From: Endomicrobium sp.
GTDB lineage: Bacteria; Elusimicrobiota; Endomicrobiia; Endomicrobiales; Endomicrobiaceae
DNA length: 12,144 nucleotides
Assembly: GCA_031273885.1 (NCBI GenBank)
Contig: JAISRA010000031.1
Span: 1 to 12,144, forward strand
Direction: 5' to 3'
Of the stretch, positions 107 to 11,154 are shown piece by piece (positions within the stretch are counted from its first letter, which is position 1; the number at the start of each line of letters is the position of its first letter). The position numbers and the translations under genes were made by a program. The notes beneath the pieces are model-generated. The model was not told where the DNA came from. It made no database searches and saw nothing but the letters and a program-made list of their open reading frames with translations.

Positions 107-162
107 TTTTGTCTTCCCCCAAAAATCTCTACTATGATAGTATTTTATAATTCAAATAAATT

Positions 163-234
163 AGCCGAGGGCGGGAATTGAACCCGCGACCACCTCCTTA
201 CCAAGGAGATGCTCTACCACTGAGCCACCTCGGC
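163..234 (-). tRNA. tRNA-Thr, anticodon GGT
   Basis: A full cloverleaf can be folded. The 7-bp acceptor GCCGAGG/CCTCGGC is perfect, the D arm is GCTC/GAGC, the anticodon stem TCTCC/GGAGG closes the loop TTGGTAA, and the T arm is GCGGG-TTCAATT-CCCGC. The anticodon GGT reads ACC and ACT. The discriminator base is T and the CCA tail is not encoded, so it must be added by CCA-adding enzyme. This gene sits directly before tuf, as thrT does before tufB in E. coli. Confidence 0.96.
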
Positions 235-263
235 CGCCAAATAGGAAAACAAACAACCTGAAA

Positions 264-334
264 AGCGGGAGACGGGAATCGAACCCGCATGACCAGCTTG
301 GAAGGCTAGAGCACTGCCACTGTGCTACTCCCGC
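264..334 (-). tRNA. tRNA-Gly, anticodon TCC
   Basis: The 71-base cloverleaf has acceptor GCGGGAG/CTCCCGC, D arm GCAC/GTGC, anticodon stem CTAGC/GCTGG with loop CTTCCAA, and T arm GCGGG-TTCGATT-CCCGT. The anticodon TCC reads GGA and GGG. The discriminator is T, as in E. coli glycine tRNAs, and CCA is not encoded. It lies 29 bases upstream of tRNA-Thr and 16 bases downstream of tRNA-Tyr in the same transcription unit. Confidence 0.96.
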
Positions 335-350
335 AAATAAATTTTTTATA

Positions 351-433
351 TGGGGGCGGATGGATTTGAACCACCGAAGGGCAAGCCCGCCAGATTTACA
401 GTCTGGTGCATTAAACCACTCTGCCACACCCCC
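351..433 (-). tRNA. tRNA-Tyr, anticodon GTA
   Basis: This is an 83-base class II tRNA with the long variable arm expected for bacterial tRNA-Tyr. The acceptor GGGGGTG pairs with CGCCCCC. The anticodon stem CCAGA/TCTGG closes loop CTGTAAA with anticodon GTA, and the T arm is GGTGG-TTCAAAT-CCATC. The discriminator is A and CCA is not encoded. It is the first tRNA of the operon, beginning about 100 bases downstream of the predicted promoter. Confidence 0.96.
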
Positions 434-2719: not shown

Positions 2720-2912
2720 ACTTTTAATCCACAAATAATTCTTAAACCATATTAATATTTCTAGACAAATATTTTTATTAAGTGAATGTAATAAAATTTT
2801 TACTTTTCGAGATTTGAGAAAATCTGCTACTATAAAATTATACCTGTACTTTAATCACAATTTTGTTTTTATACTAAACAAAACTTAAACGTGCTATTAA
2901 GCAACAATTTTG

Positions 2913-2938
2913 ACGGTACTAAAAAACGGTACTAAAAA
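2913..2938. repeat. Perfect 13-bp tandem duplication
   Basis: Acggtactaaaaa occurs twice in direct succession (2913-2925 and 2926-2938) with no mismatch. It lies in the non-coding stretch downstream of mtaB and looks like a recent replication-slippage event. Confidence 0.9.
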
Positions 2939-3320
2939 TTTGAATTTATTATATTTTTTCAATATGAGTGAAAAATGAAGAAGCTAACAACAGCATAATT
3001 AATATATTGCAACTTTTACGCAATTTATGTTAACCATCATAACGATATAGTTCAGTTTATACGCACATTCTCCTATGGAGGCATAATTATGAGCCAATTA
3101 AGGTAAAGAAGCGAATGTAAAAAGATGATTCTGTTTTTGTGCCTTTACACAATATTCGGTCTTTCTCCTCTTTCTTTTTAAAATCTGTATACCCCACACA
3201 CTCCTCTATTGAGGATCTCTATCTGCTATACCGGTACTTCCATTTTTATCACTCTAGCAATATATGAATATTAAAACTTCATTTTTTAAATTTCAATATC
3301 TTTGAGAAATCCCTCTACAC

Positions 3321-3338
3321 TGCCAGCAGTGCCAGCAG
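3321..3338. repeat. Perfect 9-bp tandem duplication
   Basis: Tgccagcag is repeated back to back (3321-3329, 3330-3338). It is unusually GC-rich for its surroundings, so chance is less likely than for A/T repeats. It falls within a scrap of minus-strand reading frame, where it would add three residues. Confidence 0.85.
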
Positions 3339-3804
3339 AATGAATAACACTAAAAACATAGTAGGAACAATTATTCCCACATTATAGCGTATTTATTAAT
3401 GCGCTTCATTGTTAAGAGCGACATGGGGGAATATGCATGAGAAGTGAGAAGAATGTACAGAAAAACTGCTCTATAAATAAATAACAAACGAAATGATCAC
3501 AATTTTGATAGCATGTTCGGAATTAACAACTAAAATCTTTCTACATTCAAATATTTCCTTTTGAAACTAAAGTTGGTTCTGCTAATAATCTCAAGAACTA
3601 GTTTAAACATTTCTAATGTTACTTTAGCTGTCTGTGTGGTTGGGGTACGTGTTAACTTCAATTGCATTACAGAACATATTTGCTACAATCCATCATAAAC
3701 TTTATTCTGTTTGCAACTATCTACATAACTAACCGTAATGAATGAAGATAAAGTATAAATTTAGCAATAATAAAAGTCATTTTACGTTCACACCATTTTA
3801 GAGA

Positions 3805-4361
3805 TTATTTTCTCTTTGAATTATCTTTTTGTACAATCACACTAACCTGAATATTTTCACAAGTATAATCTACCTTGGCACATGTGTACTTTTCTTTGCA
3901 GTACAACTTCATTTCATTGTTTAATAGTTCTGGAATACATTTTATGAATTCCTCTTTTTTACAAAATTATTTGTTAAAAAATCAGAGTTTTTTACTTTCA
4001 AGTTCAATTGCTCTATCAATTTATTAACAACATTATTTTCCTTTTATGCTTTTATCTTATACAAAAAATTTTATCAATATTTTTTGTATAAGATTAACAT
4101 TCTTGATTATTTTTTCTATGAAACCATTCATATCATAAGGAGTTAAATTACTTCTATCTTGGTTAAATTTTGTTTTAGTTAAAACAAAATTTATCAGTGA
4201 ATCAAAACTTCTTATTTTTCCACGAACTAAAAGAATCATCCTTTCTCATTTTCGAGATCTAGATATCGTTCTTTTTGCCTAACAAACAATCCTATTTTAA
4301 TGATTCCAATAAATATATTCTTAACAACATGAACAATAATGCCGCCCTTTCCCATTTCCAT
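3805..4361 (-). pseudogene. Remnant of a two-component sensor histidine kinase, frameshifted and truncated
   Basis: Four minus-strand segments in shifting frames read in kinase order. Segment A (4361-4236) has GKGGIIVHVVKNIFIGIIKI, resembling a HisKA H-box with phospho-accepting His, and ends at TGA. Segment B (4239-4057) resembles the second dimerisation helix (LTPYDMNGFIEKIIKNV) and ends inside an inverted repeat. Segment C (4043-3942) holds NNVVNKLIEQLNLKVKNSDF. Segment D (3966-3805) has EEFIKCIPELLNNEMKLY, close to the N-box ELLNNA-K, then VSVIVQKDNSK, similar to the start of the D-box, and stops there. The C to D shift falls in a six-A run. The glycine-rich ATP-lid boxes, any sensor region and an intact start are missing. 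The identification rests on motif order only. An unrelated dead gene is possible, but an intact protein is not. Confidence 0.45.
4054..4094. repeat. Perfect 16-bp inverted repeat, 9-base loop
   Basis: Atcttatacaaaaaat (4054-4069) and its exact reverse complement (4079-4094) flank tttatcaat. On the minus strand the first arm encodes NLIQK of the kinase remnant, and the second arm is an inverted copy of the same bases that introduces the stop codon. It is not followed by a clean T-run, so I favour a local inverted duplication over an intrinsic terminator. Confidence 0.85.
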
Positions 4362-4920
4362 TAAAAATTTGTTTTAATTTTTTCGTATTCGTGGAAGCAT
4401 CTGTATTTTCTTTTTTATCACAGCATAAGTAAGTAAGCCCACGCTAAACTAACATCATAAATCTACATAGCTCCCCCGTCATAGCGGACATATACAGGCC
4501 TTAAAAATCTGCCCAACTTCTAGGTTTTACATCTTGTAACCGAAAAATATTCAACTTTACTTTTTGCAGGAAGTAAATCCTATCGATATCCTCCTATCTG
4601 GATTTTCCTTTGTTGATTGAGATTAAACTTTTGATATAATACCTCTATACATTTTTTCTGATTATTTTTTATTTATAGTCAAAAATCATTCTTTTATTAC
4701 TCATTATTATAATTATAATATATTAATTAAAAGCTCGAGACAGTGTTTTCAAGAACTGCTTTGTCGATACACAAATATTCTGAAAAATTTATTAACCTGT
4801 AAAAGTTTTTTAAATATTTCATAAACAGTTCCTAAGAATTTTTATTAAGCTCTACAAACATATCCCTTTAAAAATCATTTATATATTCTAAAATTTAATA
4901 TATGAAAATGACAACTTACT
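4362..4920. other. Intergenic stretch without an intact gene
   Basis: The part next to the kinase remnant contains minus-strand scraps that could be its upstream portion, for example DIDRIYFLQKVKLNIFRLQD near 4530-4600. All are interrupted, and I cannot place a sensor domain. The part next to nnrD is almost pure A/T. It has one weak all-A/T inverted repeat, atatatt at 4881-4887 against aatatat at 4897-4903, about 20 bases after the nnrD stop on the minus strand. That could mark the end of the operon transcript but is too weak to call a terminator. Confidence 0.4.
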
Positions 4921-8952: not shown

Positions 8953-10287
8953 TTAAGCTTCAATTTCTTCTTCAATACTGTTCGCTATATTTTCTGCCAT
9001 TATCTTAATTTGCCTTGGGTCTTTACCTTCAACCATAACTCTTAAAAGCTTCTCAGTACCTGAATATCTCACAAGTACACCTCCACTTCTATTTAAAGAT
9101 TTTTCATAATACTTTATAAGCTTATAAGATTTTGGCAGTTTTTCAATAGGCACTTTTTTTATAACTTTTCTATTTACAAACACCTGAGGAAACTTTTCAA
9201 TTATATTCATAAATTCCGACATTGTTTTATTTGTATCGCATAATGCCGAAAGAAGCATAATTGCACTTAACATTCCATCACCTGTAGTTAAAATATCCTT
9301 AAATATAAAATGTCCTGACTGCTCGCCACCAAGCGACGCCTTATATTTTTTCATATCCTCCATTACGTACCTGTCACCAACTTTTGCAGATATTACTTGT
9401 ATCTTTTTTCTCTTCATTGCCTGAAAAAGCCCAATGTTTGCCATCACAGTGGTTACTAAAGTGCTATTTTTTAGTTTCTTTTTGCTTTTTAACCAAACCG
9501 CCATTGAAGCTAAAAAATAATCACCATCTCTTATCATTCCATTTTCGTCAATACATATTAATCTGTCAGCATCTCCGTCAAAAGCAAAACCACAAAAAGA
9601 TTTAGAGTCTTTTACTATTTTTGCAACAACCTCAGGATACAACGCACCACAATTTAAATTTATATTTTTCCCATCCGGCTTAACATTCAAAGCGATAACT
9701 TTTGCTCCAAGGTTTTTTAACACATAAGGAACAGATTTATAAGACGCACCATTAGCACAGTCTATAACTATTGTCCTTCCTTTAAGATTCATGCCAGTAA
9801 AATTTCTTACAATAAAATCTTCATAAAATCTTAAAAATTTAGAATCTTCTTTTACAATTATTCTTTTATTTGAAACTGTAATTTTTAAGTTGAGATATTT
9901 TTCTATTTTCTTTTCAATTTTTGCTTCTACAGAATCGGCAAGTTTAAATCCTTTGGAATTGAAAATCTTAATCCCGTTATCAATATAGAGATTATGGCTT
10001 GCAGAAATTACTATAGCTGCTGAATATTTGTAACTTCGCACAAGCAAAGAAGCTGAAGGCGTAGGCATAATACCGCCAAAAATAGATTTTTTGCCAACAC
10101 TTGCAATACCTTTTGCCAAATTTTTTTGTATTCTTTTTCCAGATTCTCTTGTATCACGTATGATTAGAATATCATTTTTGCCACATAAAGTTTCAGCTAC
10201 AGATCTACCAATAATTTCAAGTGTTGTATCGTCGAAAGGGAATACTGAAGAATCACCTCTTATACCATCGGTACCAAACAGTTTCAT
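8953..10287 (-). CDS. glmM: Phosphoglucosamine mutase
   Basis: GlmM interconverts glucosamine-6-phosphate and glucosamine-1-phosphate, feeding UDP-GlcNAc synthesis. The 444-residue reading agrees with the usual 445-450. It begins MKLFGTDGIRGDS and has the phosphoserine loop ISASHN (S97), the metal loop FDGDADR (D237, D239, D241), the sugar loop GGEQSGH, and the C-terminal phosphate loop RYSGTE (about 407-412). Two normally fixed prolines are replaced: SASHNP reads SASHNL, and RPSGTEP reads RYSGTEK. The catalytic residues themselves are kept. I chose ATG 10287, one base after the preceding micro-gene stop (TAG-A-ATG). ATG 10305 and TTG 10326 are in frame upstream but overlap the micro-gene and add non-family residues. 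No ribosome site is evident, so translation probably depends on re-initiation. In Firmicutes GlmM binds and inhibits CdaA, encoded just upstream here. Confidence 0.96.
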   Translation of the reverse strand: MKLFGTDGIRGDSSVFPFDDTTLEIIGRSVAETLCGKNDILIIRDTRESGKRIQKNLAKGIASVGKKSIFGGIMPTPSASLLVRSYKYSAAIVISASHNLYIDNGIKIFNSKGFKLADSVEAKIEKKIEKYLNLKITVSNKRIIVKEDSKFLRFYEDFIVRNFTGMNLKGRTIVIDCANGASYKSVPYVLKNLGAKVIALNVKPDGKNINLNCGALYPEVVAKIVKDSKSFCGFAFDGDADRLICIDENGMIRDGDYFLASMAVWLKSKKKLKNSTLVTTVMANIGLFQAMKRKKIQVISAKVGDRYVMEDMKKYKASLGGEQSGHFIFKDILTTGDGMLSAIMLLSALCDTNKTMSEFMNIIEKFPQVFVNRKVIKKVPIEKLPKSYKLIKYYEKSLNRSGGVLVRYSGTEKLLRVMVEGKDPRQIKIMAENIANSIEEEIEA

Positions 10288-10288
10288 T

Positions 10289-10390
10289 CTATATGTATCT
10301 TGCATATAGCCAGACAGAAAATGCAAGCATTAAAGCAAGTACTTTGAGCCTCCAGTTTTTTTTATTTCTGATATGCAATAATCTTCTCAT
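10289..10390 (-). CDS. 33-residue CdaR/YbbR-like membrane micro-protein between cdaA and glmM
   Basis: The ATG (10390-10388) overlaps the cdaA TGA as ATGA, and the TAG (10291-10289) ends one base before the glmM ATG. The product is a basic head (MRRLLHIRNKK) followed by NWRLKVLALMLAFSVWLY, one transmembrane helix, then ARYI. The N-W-x-x-K-x-x-A-L pattern followed by a hydrophobic run and Trp/Leu/Tyr resembles, from memory, the N-terminal anchor of CdaR/YbbR; B. subtilis YbbR has NRWAVKIIALLFALLLY. CdaR is the usual gene at this exact place and modulates CdaA through extracytoplasmic YbbR domains, all of which are missing here. Junctions with both neighbours are tight and the frame is clean. 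It could be a functional anchor-only CdaR, or a deletion product kept for translational coupling. Whether it is translated is not shown by sequence alone. Confidence 0.7.
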   Translation of the reverse strand: MRRLLHIRNKKNWRLKVLALMLAFSVWLYARYI

Positions 10391-11154
10391 TTTAATTTCC
10401 AAGCCTTGCCGTTTGTATTAATTATTTCTTTAAGATTTGAAGCTAATATATTACTGGTTAAATTACCTTTATATGCAACAGATATTTGACCCGTTTCCTC
10501 GGAAACAATAATTACTACAGCATCAGTTACCTCACTTAAACCAAGCGCAGCTCTATGTCTTGTTCCCACTATTTTGATATTGGTGTTATGGCTTAACGGA
10601 AACAAACAGCTTGCCGCTATAATTTTTCCATCAAATATTATTACAGCTCCATCATGCAAAGGAGCAGATTTATTTTTAAAAATTGAAAGAAGTAGTTCTT
10701 TTGAAATATCTGCATTTAAAGCTACTCCCATTTCAGTAAAATTCTTTAAACCTATTTCGTTTTCGATTGCTATTAATCCACCAATCATAGACGCACTTAA
10801 ATCTTCAACAGCAGCAATAATTTCTGTTGCATAAGAATCAGGGACCTTAGTTTTTAAACCCCAAAATTGCCCACCAATTTGAGCCAAAACATTACGAATT
10901 TCAGTTTGAAATATGACGGTAAATATAATAACAGCAGCAAGCCAGAAATTCTCTAATAGCCATGACAAAGCTCTAAGATGCAATATATCCCTAGAAACCA
11001 CTGTAAGAGCTAAAATAAATAATAACCCTACAACAATTTGAATCGCTCTTGTCCCTTTTATTACAAGAATAACTTTATAAAATATTATCGATAGTATGAG
11101 AACATCCAAAATATTTACTATATATAAGTTGTATATCCGTAACATAGTCCTCAT
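10387..11154 (-). CDS. cdaA: Diadenylate cyclase CdaA, membrane-anchored c-di-AMP synthase
   Basis: CdaA condenses two ATP into cyclic di-AMP, a second messenger tied to potassium, osmotic and cell-wall control. The 255-residue product has three N-terminal membrane segments (about 14-32, 38-54 and 66-83) and a cytoplasmic DAC domain. Both catalytic signatures are present: DGA (168-170, in APLHDGAVII) and RHR (199-201, in VGTRHRAALG). SEETGQIS follows near the end. ATG 11154 is preceded by AGAGGA (11168-11163) at 8 bases; an ATG three codons later is too close to that site to use it. It lies 41 bases downstream of folP and overlaps the CdaR-like micro-gene by ATGA. The cdaA-cdaR-glmM order is widespread, so the context supports the call. 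Confidence 0.96.
   Translation of the reverse strand: MRTMLRIYNLYIVNILDVLILSIIFYKVILVIKGTRAIQIVVGLLFILALTVVSRDILHLRALSWLLENFWLAAVIIFTVIFQTEIRNVLAQIGGQFWGLKTKVPDSYATEIIAAVEDLSASMIGGLIAIENEIGLKNFTEMGVALNADISKELLLSIFKNKSAPLHDGAVIIFDGKIIAASCLFPLSHNTNIKIVGTRHRAALGLSEVTDAVVIIVSEETGQISVAYKGNLTSNILASNLKEIINTNGKAWKLK

What the first reader, a model, noticed from the sequence alone, without database searches (positions are those of the whole stretch)
10289..10390. A 33-residue, anchor-only CdaR-like micro-protein between cdaA and glmM
The sequence shows a clean short frame exactly where cdaR normally sits. It is joined to cdaA by ATGA and to glmM by TAG-A-ATG, and encodes only a basic head and one membrane helix of YbbR type. 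The established arrangement is cdaA-cdaR-glmM, in which CdaR has an N-terminal anchor plus YbbR domains that influence CdaA. I infer that the domains were lost while the anchor and both coupled junctions were retained. It could be a minimal CdaA partner acting within the membrane, or a translational linker to glmM. Short size makes it easy for gene callers to miss.
Basis: partly seen in the sequence, partly recalled or inferred. Interest (0 to 1): 0.72.

Follow-up and report, generated by a model that had tools for sequence, protein, structure and literature searches.

The report
Anchor-only CdaR beside CdaA
A termite-gut symbiont's lineage keeps only the single membrane helix of a known regulator (CdaR) beside the enzyme that makes the signal cyclic di-AMP, and this helix-only form is common across its phylum, which points to the helix as the part that acts on the enzyme.

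Summary
The 33-codon frame is a real, conserved gene on the minus strand (10390..10289). It overlaps the cdaA stop as ATGA and ends one base before glmM. It is not a local remnant: a profile of it matches 161 of 340 Elusimicrobiota genomes, all among the 223 with CdaA and none among the 117 without. In the genus its pN/pS is 0.28, against 0.23 for cdaA. It is homologous to the N-terminal anchor of full-length CdaR (hhalign 97.5%). A YbbR profile matches 16 of 340 genomes, none of the 76 in its family. The anchor is also fused in frame to the CdaA C-terminus in three lineages, and in a divergent cyclase class with or without YbbR. In 13 loci it follows cdaA with no glmM in the stretch fetched, so it is not merely a glmM linker. 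Its conservation peaks on one helix face, the same face as in full CdaR. Best reading: a minimal CdaR, a one-helix membrane partner of CdaA that has lost the outside domain. Binding and effect on c-di-AMP are inferred, not shown. New variant of a known kind.

The parts
10289..10390 (-). Micro-gene: 33-residue anchor-only CdaR-like protein (basic head plus one membrane helix)
   Evidence: no Pfam or NCBIfam match by itself
10310..10357 (-). Codons 12-27, holding the conserved helix face N12, K16, A19, A23, W27
   Evidence: N12, K16, A23, W27 at 90% or more in A1; conservation moment peaks at 100 degrees, permutation P 0.0001
10387..10390 (-). ATGA overlap of micro start and cdaA stop
   Evidence: the same -4 offset in 42 of 92 loci with the anchor
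10387..11154 (-). cdaA, diadenylate cyclase, 255 aa, with the CdaA membrane domain
   Evidence: Pfam DAC and CdaA_N over cut-off; TIGR00159 230.1 bits against cut-off 188.8
8953..10287 (-). glmM, phosphoglucosamine mutase, starting one base after the micro stop (ATG start taken here; the ORF tool lists an upstream TTG)
   Evidence: named by recognition, used as tblastn query

Best explanation
The frame encodes a minimal CdaR: the N-terminal membrane anchor of CdaR without YbbR domains. It is translated from the cdaA message, inserts as a single helix with its basic N-terminus in the cytoplasm, and packs by one conserved face (N-K-A-A-W) against the membrane part of CdaA, helping to assemble the cyclase or set its activity. 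Having no outside domain, it should act as a fixed subunit rather than a sensor. Shown by computation: coding, conservation, homology to the CdaR anchor, absence of YbbR in the family, co-occurrence, fusions, one conserved face. Inferred: expression, insertion, binding, effect on c-di-AMP.
For: Purifying selection in frame only. 161 of 161 anchor-bearing genomes have CdaA; 0 of 117 without CdaA have the anchor. Homology to CdaR anchors: 45 of 75 non-Elusimicrobia CdaA loci have the A1 match (E <= 0.1; 30 at <= 0.001) at the head of a frame running at least 100 residues further; hhalign 97.5%. In-frame fusions to the CdaA C-terminus in G299, in G330/G331 and in G159/G160, which also require the anchor N-terminus to lie on the DAC (cytoplasmic) side. 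A second cyclase class carries the anchor fused with YbbR (10 of 26 loci) or without it (14 of 26). Same conserved face in micro-proteins, type II and outgroup CdaR. Literature passages: CdaR/YbbR contacts the membrane region of CdaA (PMC6368335; PMC8573169); a suppressor of ybbR deletion lies in helix 3 of DacA (PMC5207132); YbbR needed for full DacA output in Chlamydia (PMC12422730).
Against: No experiment here. CdaA without a detected anchor exists: f8 (5 genomes), f24 (4), G229, and G222 where CdaA is a fragment, so the helix is not universally required. In those, CdaA membrane residues were not detectably relaxed (P 0.57, 7 against 53 loci). AlphaFold2 of two natural fusions gave a C-terminal helix but no readable packing. 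The permutation tests ignore relatedness. In S. aureus no conclusive regulatory role of YbbR was found (PMC6368335), and CdaR is a negative regulator in P. gingivalis (PMC9259658).
Confidence: 0.75

Rival explanations
1. Translational linker: the short frame exists to carry ribosomes from cdaA to glmM, and its peptide does nothing.
For: Tight junctions on both sides in the window; -4 overlap in 42 of 92 loci.
Against: Amino-acid-level selection; kept after cdaA with no glmM in the fetched stretch in 13 loci; fused in frame to CdaA in three lineages, where no linker is needed.
Confidence: 0.06
2. It acts mainly on GlmM: a membrane tether that brings GlmM to the CdaA site.
For: It sits between cdaA and glmM here; in G313 it stays directly before glmM with cdaA on another contig. 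CdaA, CdaR and GlmM are reported as one complex (passages of PMC6368335).
Against: In 13 loci no glmM lies in the fetched stretch; the fusions seen are to CdaA; absent from all 117 genomes without CdaA. Whether those keep GlmM was not tested.
Confidence: 0.1
3. A decaying remnant of cdaR in a reduced symbiont genome.
For: Small genome; relatives with decayed cdaA exist (G001, G026, G296), and the frame is broken in L023.
Against: Conserved in free genome sizes of 2-4 Mb across many families; pN/pS 0.28; no YbbR match in any of the 76 family genomes, so no intact ancestor nearby.
Confidence: 0.02

Closest known systems
CdaR (YbbR), membrane regulator of CdaA, as in the Bacillus cdaA-cdaR-glmM operon
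   Same: Same place after cdaA, same N-terminal anchor motif and same conserved helix face
   Different: No YbbR domains: 33 aa here against 485 aa with YbbR in Bacillus sp. N13C7
CdaA-anchor fusion of Endomicrobium (P0090, 287 aa; L035)
   Same: Same cyclase family and same anchor, in a genus-mate of the window
   Different: One chain instead of two genes
Type II Elusimicrobiota cyclase, DAC-anchor with or without YbbR (P0212, L071)
   Same: CdaA_N, DAC and the anchor signature N-x3-K-x2-A-x7-W
   Different: Divergent cyclase with the anchor always fused in the loci seen; 10 of 26 loci keep YbbR
Short database entries named 'YbbR domain-containing protein' (P0011, P0012, P0062)
   Same: Same size range and motif; returned by the same profile
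   Different: The name is misleading: no Pfam match in the two that were scanned, P0012 and P0062

Membership tests
CdaR / YbbR | Encoded directly after cdaA, often before glmM | tested here: met
   Window junctions; 92 of 104 loci with CdaA located
CdaR / YbbR | N-terminal membrane anchor homologous to that of CdaR | tested here: met
   hhalign 97.5%, E 6e-12 over 38 columns; 45 of 75 outgroup loci at E <= 0.1
CdaR / YbbR | One or more YbbR domains outside the membrane | tested here: not met
   No Pfam match; no room before glmM; no YbbR match elsewhere in G000 or its family
CdaR / YbbR | Binds CdaA and changes c-di-AMP output | not testable with these tools
   Inferred from fusions and literature passages
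CdaA (for the neighbour gene) | CdaA membrane domain plus DAC domain, TIGR00159 over cut-off | tested here: met
   DGA and RHR motif residues invariant in 15 aligned CdaA except R201, which is nearly invariant (motif names recalled)

The most novel reading that the evidence does not exclude
The single anchor helix, not the YbbR domains, is the essential CdaA-acting element of all CdaR proteins. In Elusimicrobiota evolution has stripped CdaR to this element, kept it as a separate subunit of about 24-50 residues, and several times turned it into a fourth membrane helix of the cyclase, leaving a sensor-free c-di-AMP synthase.
Probability: 0.5. Interest if true: 0.78.

Novelty: new variant of a known kind. 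Interest (0 to 1): 0.66.

Why it matters
How CdaR controls CdaA is unsettled: it is reported as both activator and repressor, and PMC8573169 (passages) says the mechanism remains unclear. A phylum that keeps only the helix, in trans or fused, separates the two halves of CdaR by nature and names the residues to change. It makes the question directly testable with a 33-residue partner. It also adds a widespread conserved micro-protein that the named entries seen here mostly call hypothetical.

Tried and rejected
Led nowhere: a test whether CdaA membrane residues relax when the anchor is lost (7 anchor-free against 53 anchor-bearing loci, P 0.57). AlphaFold2 of two natural fusions (P0090, mean pLDDT 80.6, pTM 0.64, helix 250-285; P0212, 74.5, 0.52) gave a C-terminal helix but no readable packing; Foldseek on the first showed CdaA/DacA entries in the 50 of 317 rows printed. 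The micro-protein has no match in the plasmid collection. Nine paper searches showed no listing of an anchor-only CdaR or of c-di-AMP work in Elusimicrobiota or Endomicrobium; most subscription journals are not held, so absence from print is not claimed.

Considered and rejected: random open frame; dead remnant; pure linker. The idea that the form is confined to Elusimicrobiota was not kept: P0076, 45 aa, comes from a Candidatus Omnitrophica record; its neighbours could not be seen.

Full report
Observation. On the minus strand the window reads folP, cdaA, micro-gene, glmM, pdxJ, glmS (folP, glmM, pdxJ and glmS named by recognition). The micro-gene is 10390..10289, MRRLLHIRNKKNWRLKVLALMLAFSVWLYARYI. 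It overlaps the cdaA stop as ATGA and ends one base before the glmM ATG. CdaA passes the NCBIfam cut-off for TIGR00159. The host belongs to the genus of G299, whose CdaA (L035) is 100% identical to P0090, named by UniRef 'Diadenylate cyclase ... Endomicrobium tri' (cut off in the output). Candidatus Endomicrobiellum trichonymphae lies in phylum Elusimicrobiota. The window's own record is unnamed.

Is it a gene. In 22 of the 27 genus loci of that script's set (dropped: L020-L023 and the fusion L035) the frame has pN/pS 0.28, with pN below pS in 228 of 231 pairs; the other two frames give 0.79 and 1.21, and cdaA gives 0.23. A profile of 45 micro-proteins (A1) matches 161 of 340 phylum genomes. 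All 161 are among the 223 genomes with CdaA and none among the 117 without (recounted). The 45 rows of A1 come from genomes of this same phylum. Five of the 161 are weak hits in family f28, whose cyclase is the fused type II where it was looked at. In 104 loci where CdaA was located, 92 have the anchor near it. Start offsets are -4 in 42 of 92; apart from the L035 fusion, 90 of 91 are 24-50 aa. The 12 others are five type II loci (L041 and L071 cover the same place), G313 with the gene elsewhere, three of f8, G229 and two of f24.

What it derives from. Of the 75 not titled Elusimicrobia or Elusimicrobium, 45 have an A1 match at E <= 0.1 (30 at <= 0.001) at the head of a frame that runs at least 100 residues further; none has a short one at that level; 12 have weaker hits and 18 none. 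Examples: 9.6e-12 in Pelovirga, 1.4e-10 in Desulfarculaceae, 0.01 in Bacillus sp. N13C7. The three such proteins scanned carry YbbR. The five Elusimicrobia loci (L146-L148, L150, L151) have the helix alone; L148 is a weak match (E 0.058). Profile against profile, with 53 outgroup N-termini: 97.5%, E 6e-12 over 38 columns. YbbR: PF07949 matches 5 of 340 genomes. A profile built from nine YbbR stretches, seven of them from this phylum, matches 16 of 340 at E <= 0.01: ten are cyclase fusions seen; G241, G242 and G247 lie in frames of like length; G062 and G258 are fragments; G333 is weak. None is in the window's family of 76. The likely ancestor had a full CdaR, and the phylum's main line kept the anchor.

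Fusions. CdaA and the anchor are one in-frame chain in G299 (L035), in G330 and G331, and in G159 and G160: three lineages in three genera. Of the 120 proteins listed, 8 end in the anchor (7 by pattern, P0096 by eye). Separately, a divergent cyclase class (type II) has the anchor after the DAC domain. Of 26 type II loci, 10 continue 103-114 residues after the anchor tryptophan as a YbbR part, 14 end 6-10 residues after it, and in L117 and L122 the pattern picked another tryptophan (L122 runs into a contig end). All 120 listed relatives of the short form keep the signature. G056 has both: main CdaA with a separate micro-gene, and a DAC-anchor-YbbR fusion.

Conserved face. Conservation along the helix peaks at 100 degrees per residue in the micro-proteins (permutation P 0.0001), with N12, K16, A19, A23, W27 on one side; W13 and L15 are also well conserved. 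The same face is conserved in type II anchors (P 0.0135, peak at 95 degrees) and in 53 outgroup CdaR N-termini (P 0.0027), with phases 22, 344 and 12 degrees. Permutation ignores relatedness. The strict spacing N-x3-K-x2-[AS]-x7-[WY] holds in 76 of 92.

Not just a linker. In 13 loci (L091-L094, L097-L105) the micro-gene follows cdaA and tblastn with the window GlmM finds nothing in the fetched 1.35-1.48 kb downstream. In G313 the micro-gene stays directly before glmM with cdaA on another contig. Both fit a CdaA-CdaR-GlmM assembly.

Pathway. A PF07698 (7TM-HD, PgpH-like; function recalled) protein is present in the own genome and over the cut-off in 62 of 76 family genomes, so c-di-AMP turnover is plausible.

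Literature, all as passages: YbbR contacts the CdaA membrane region by two-hybrid, and no conclusive regulatory role was found in S. aureus (PMC6368335); a suppressor of ybbR deletion lies in helix 3 of DacA (PMC5207132); how CdaR acts is unclear (PMC8573169); YbbR is needed for full DacA output in Chlamydia (PMC12422730); CdaR co-purifies with DacA in S. mutans (PMC13289029); CdaR lowers c-di-AMP in P. gingivalis (PMC9259658). Nine searches listed no paper on an anchor-only form.

Against. f8 (5 genomes), f24 (4), G229 and G222 have a CdaA match but no detected anchor; the G222 match and the G233 match in f24 are partial. Relaxation of CdaA there was not detectable. Models gave no packing. 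No wet evidence exists.

Verdict. Real, conserved, CdaR-derived and YbbR-free: near certain. CdaA membrane partner: likely. Direction of effect on c-di-AMP: unknown.

Noticed in passing
window 2720-4920: About 2.2 kb without a frame over 60 aa between two intact genes; may be decayed genes of a reducing symbiont genome.
   Followed up: partly
window 162-433: Three tRNA genes (Thr, Gly, Tyr) on the minus strand; the 88-aa frame listed at 161-427 overlaps them and is an artefact.
   Followed up: yes
L023, L131, L134, L143 (G026, G001, G296): cdaA is decayed in some genus members (stops inside), with the anchor decaying or broken alongside; in L021 and L022 glmM was not found after the still open micro-frame.
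   Followed up: partly
L041, L042, L043, L044, L106-L108, L110, L113, L114: Single-chain fusions of cyclase, anchor helix and YbbR domain in Elusimicrobiota.
   Followed up: partly
P0076 (45 aa): Anchor-like short protein from a Candidatus Omnitrophica record suggests the form may exist outside Elusimicrobiota.
   Followed up: no
L065-L067 (f8): CdaA followed by a frame that looks like gyrB (by recognition) and no anchor: a family that seems to have lost the helix but kept the cyclase.
   Followed up: partly
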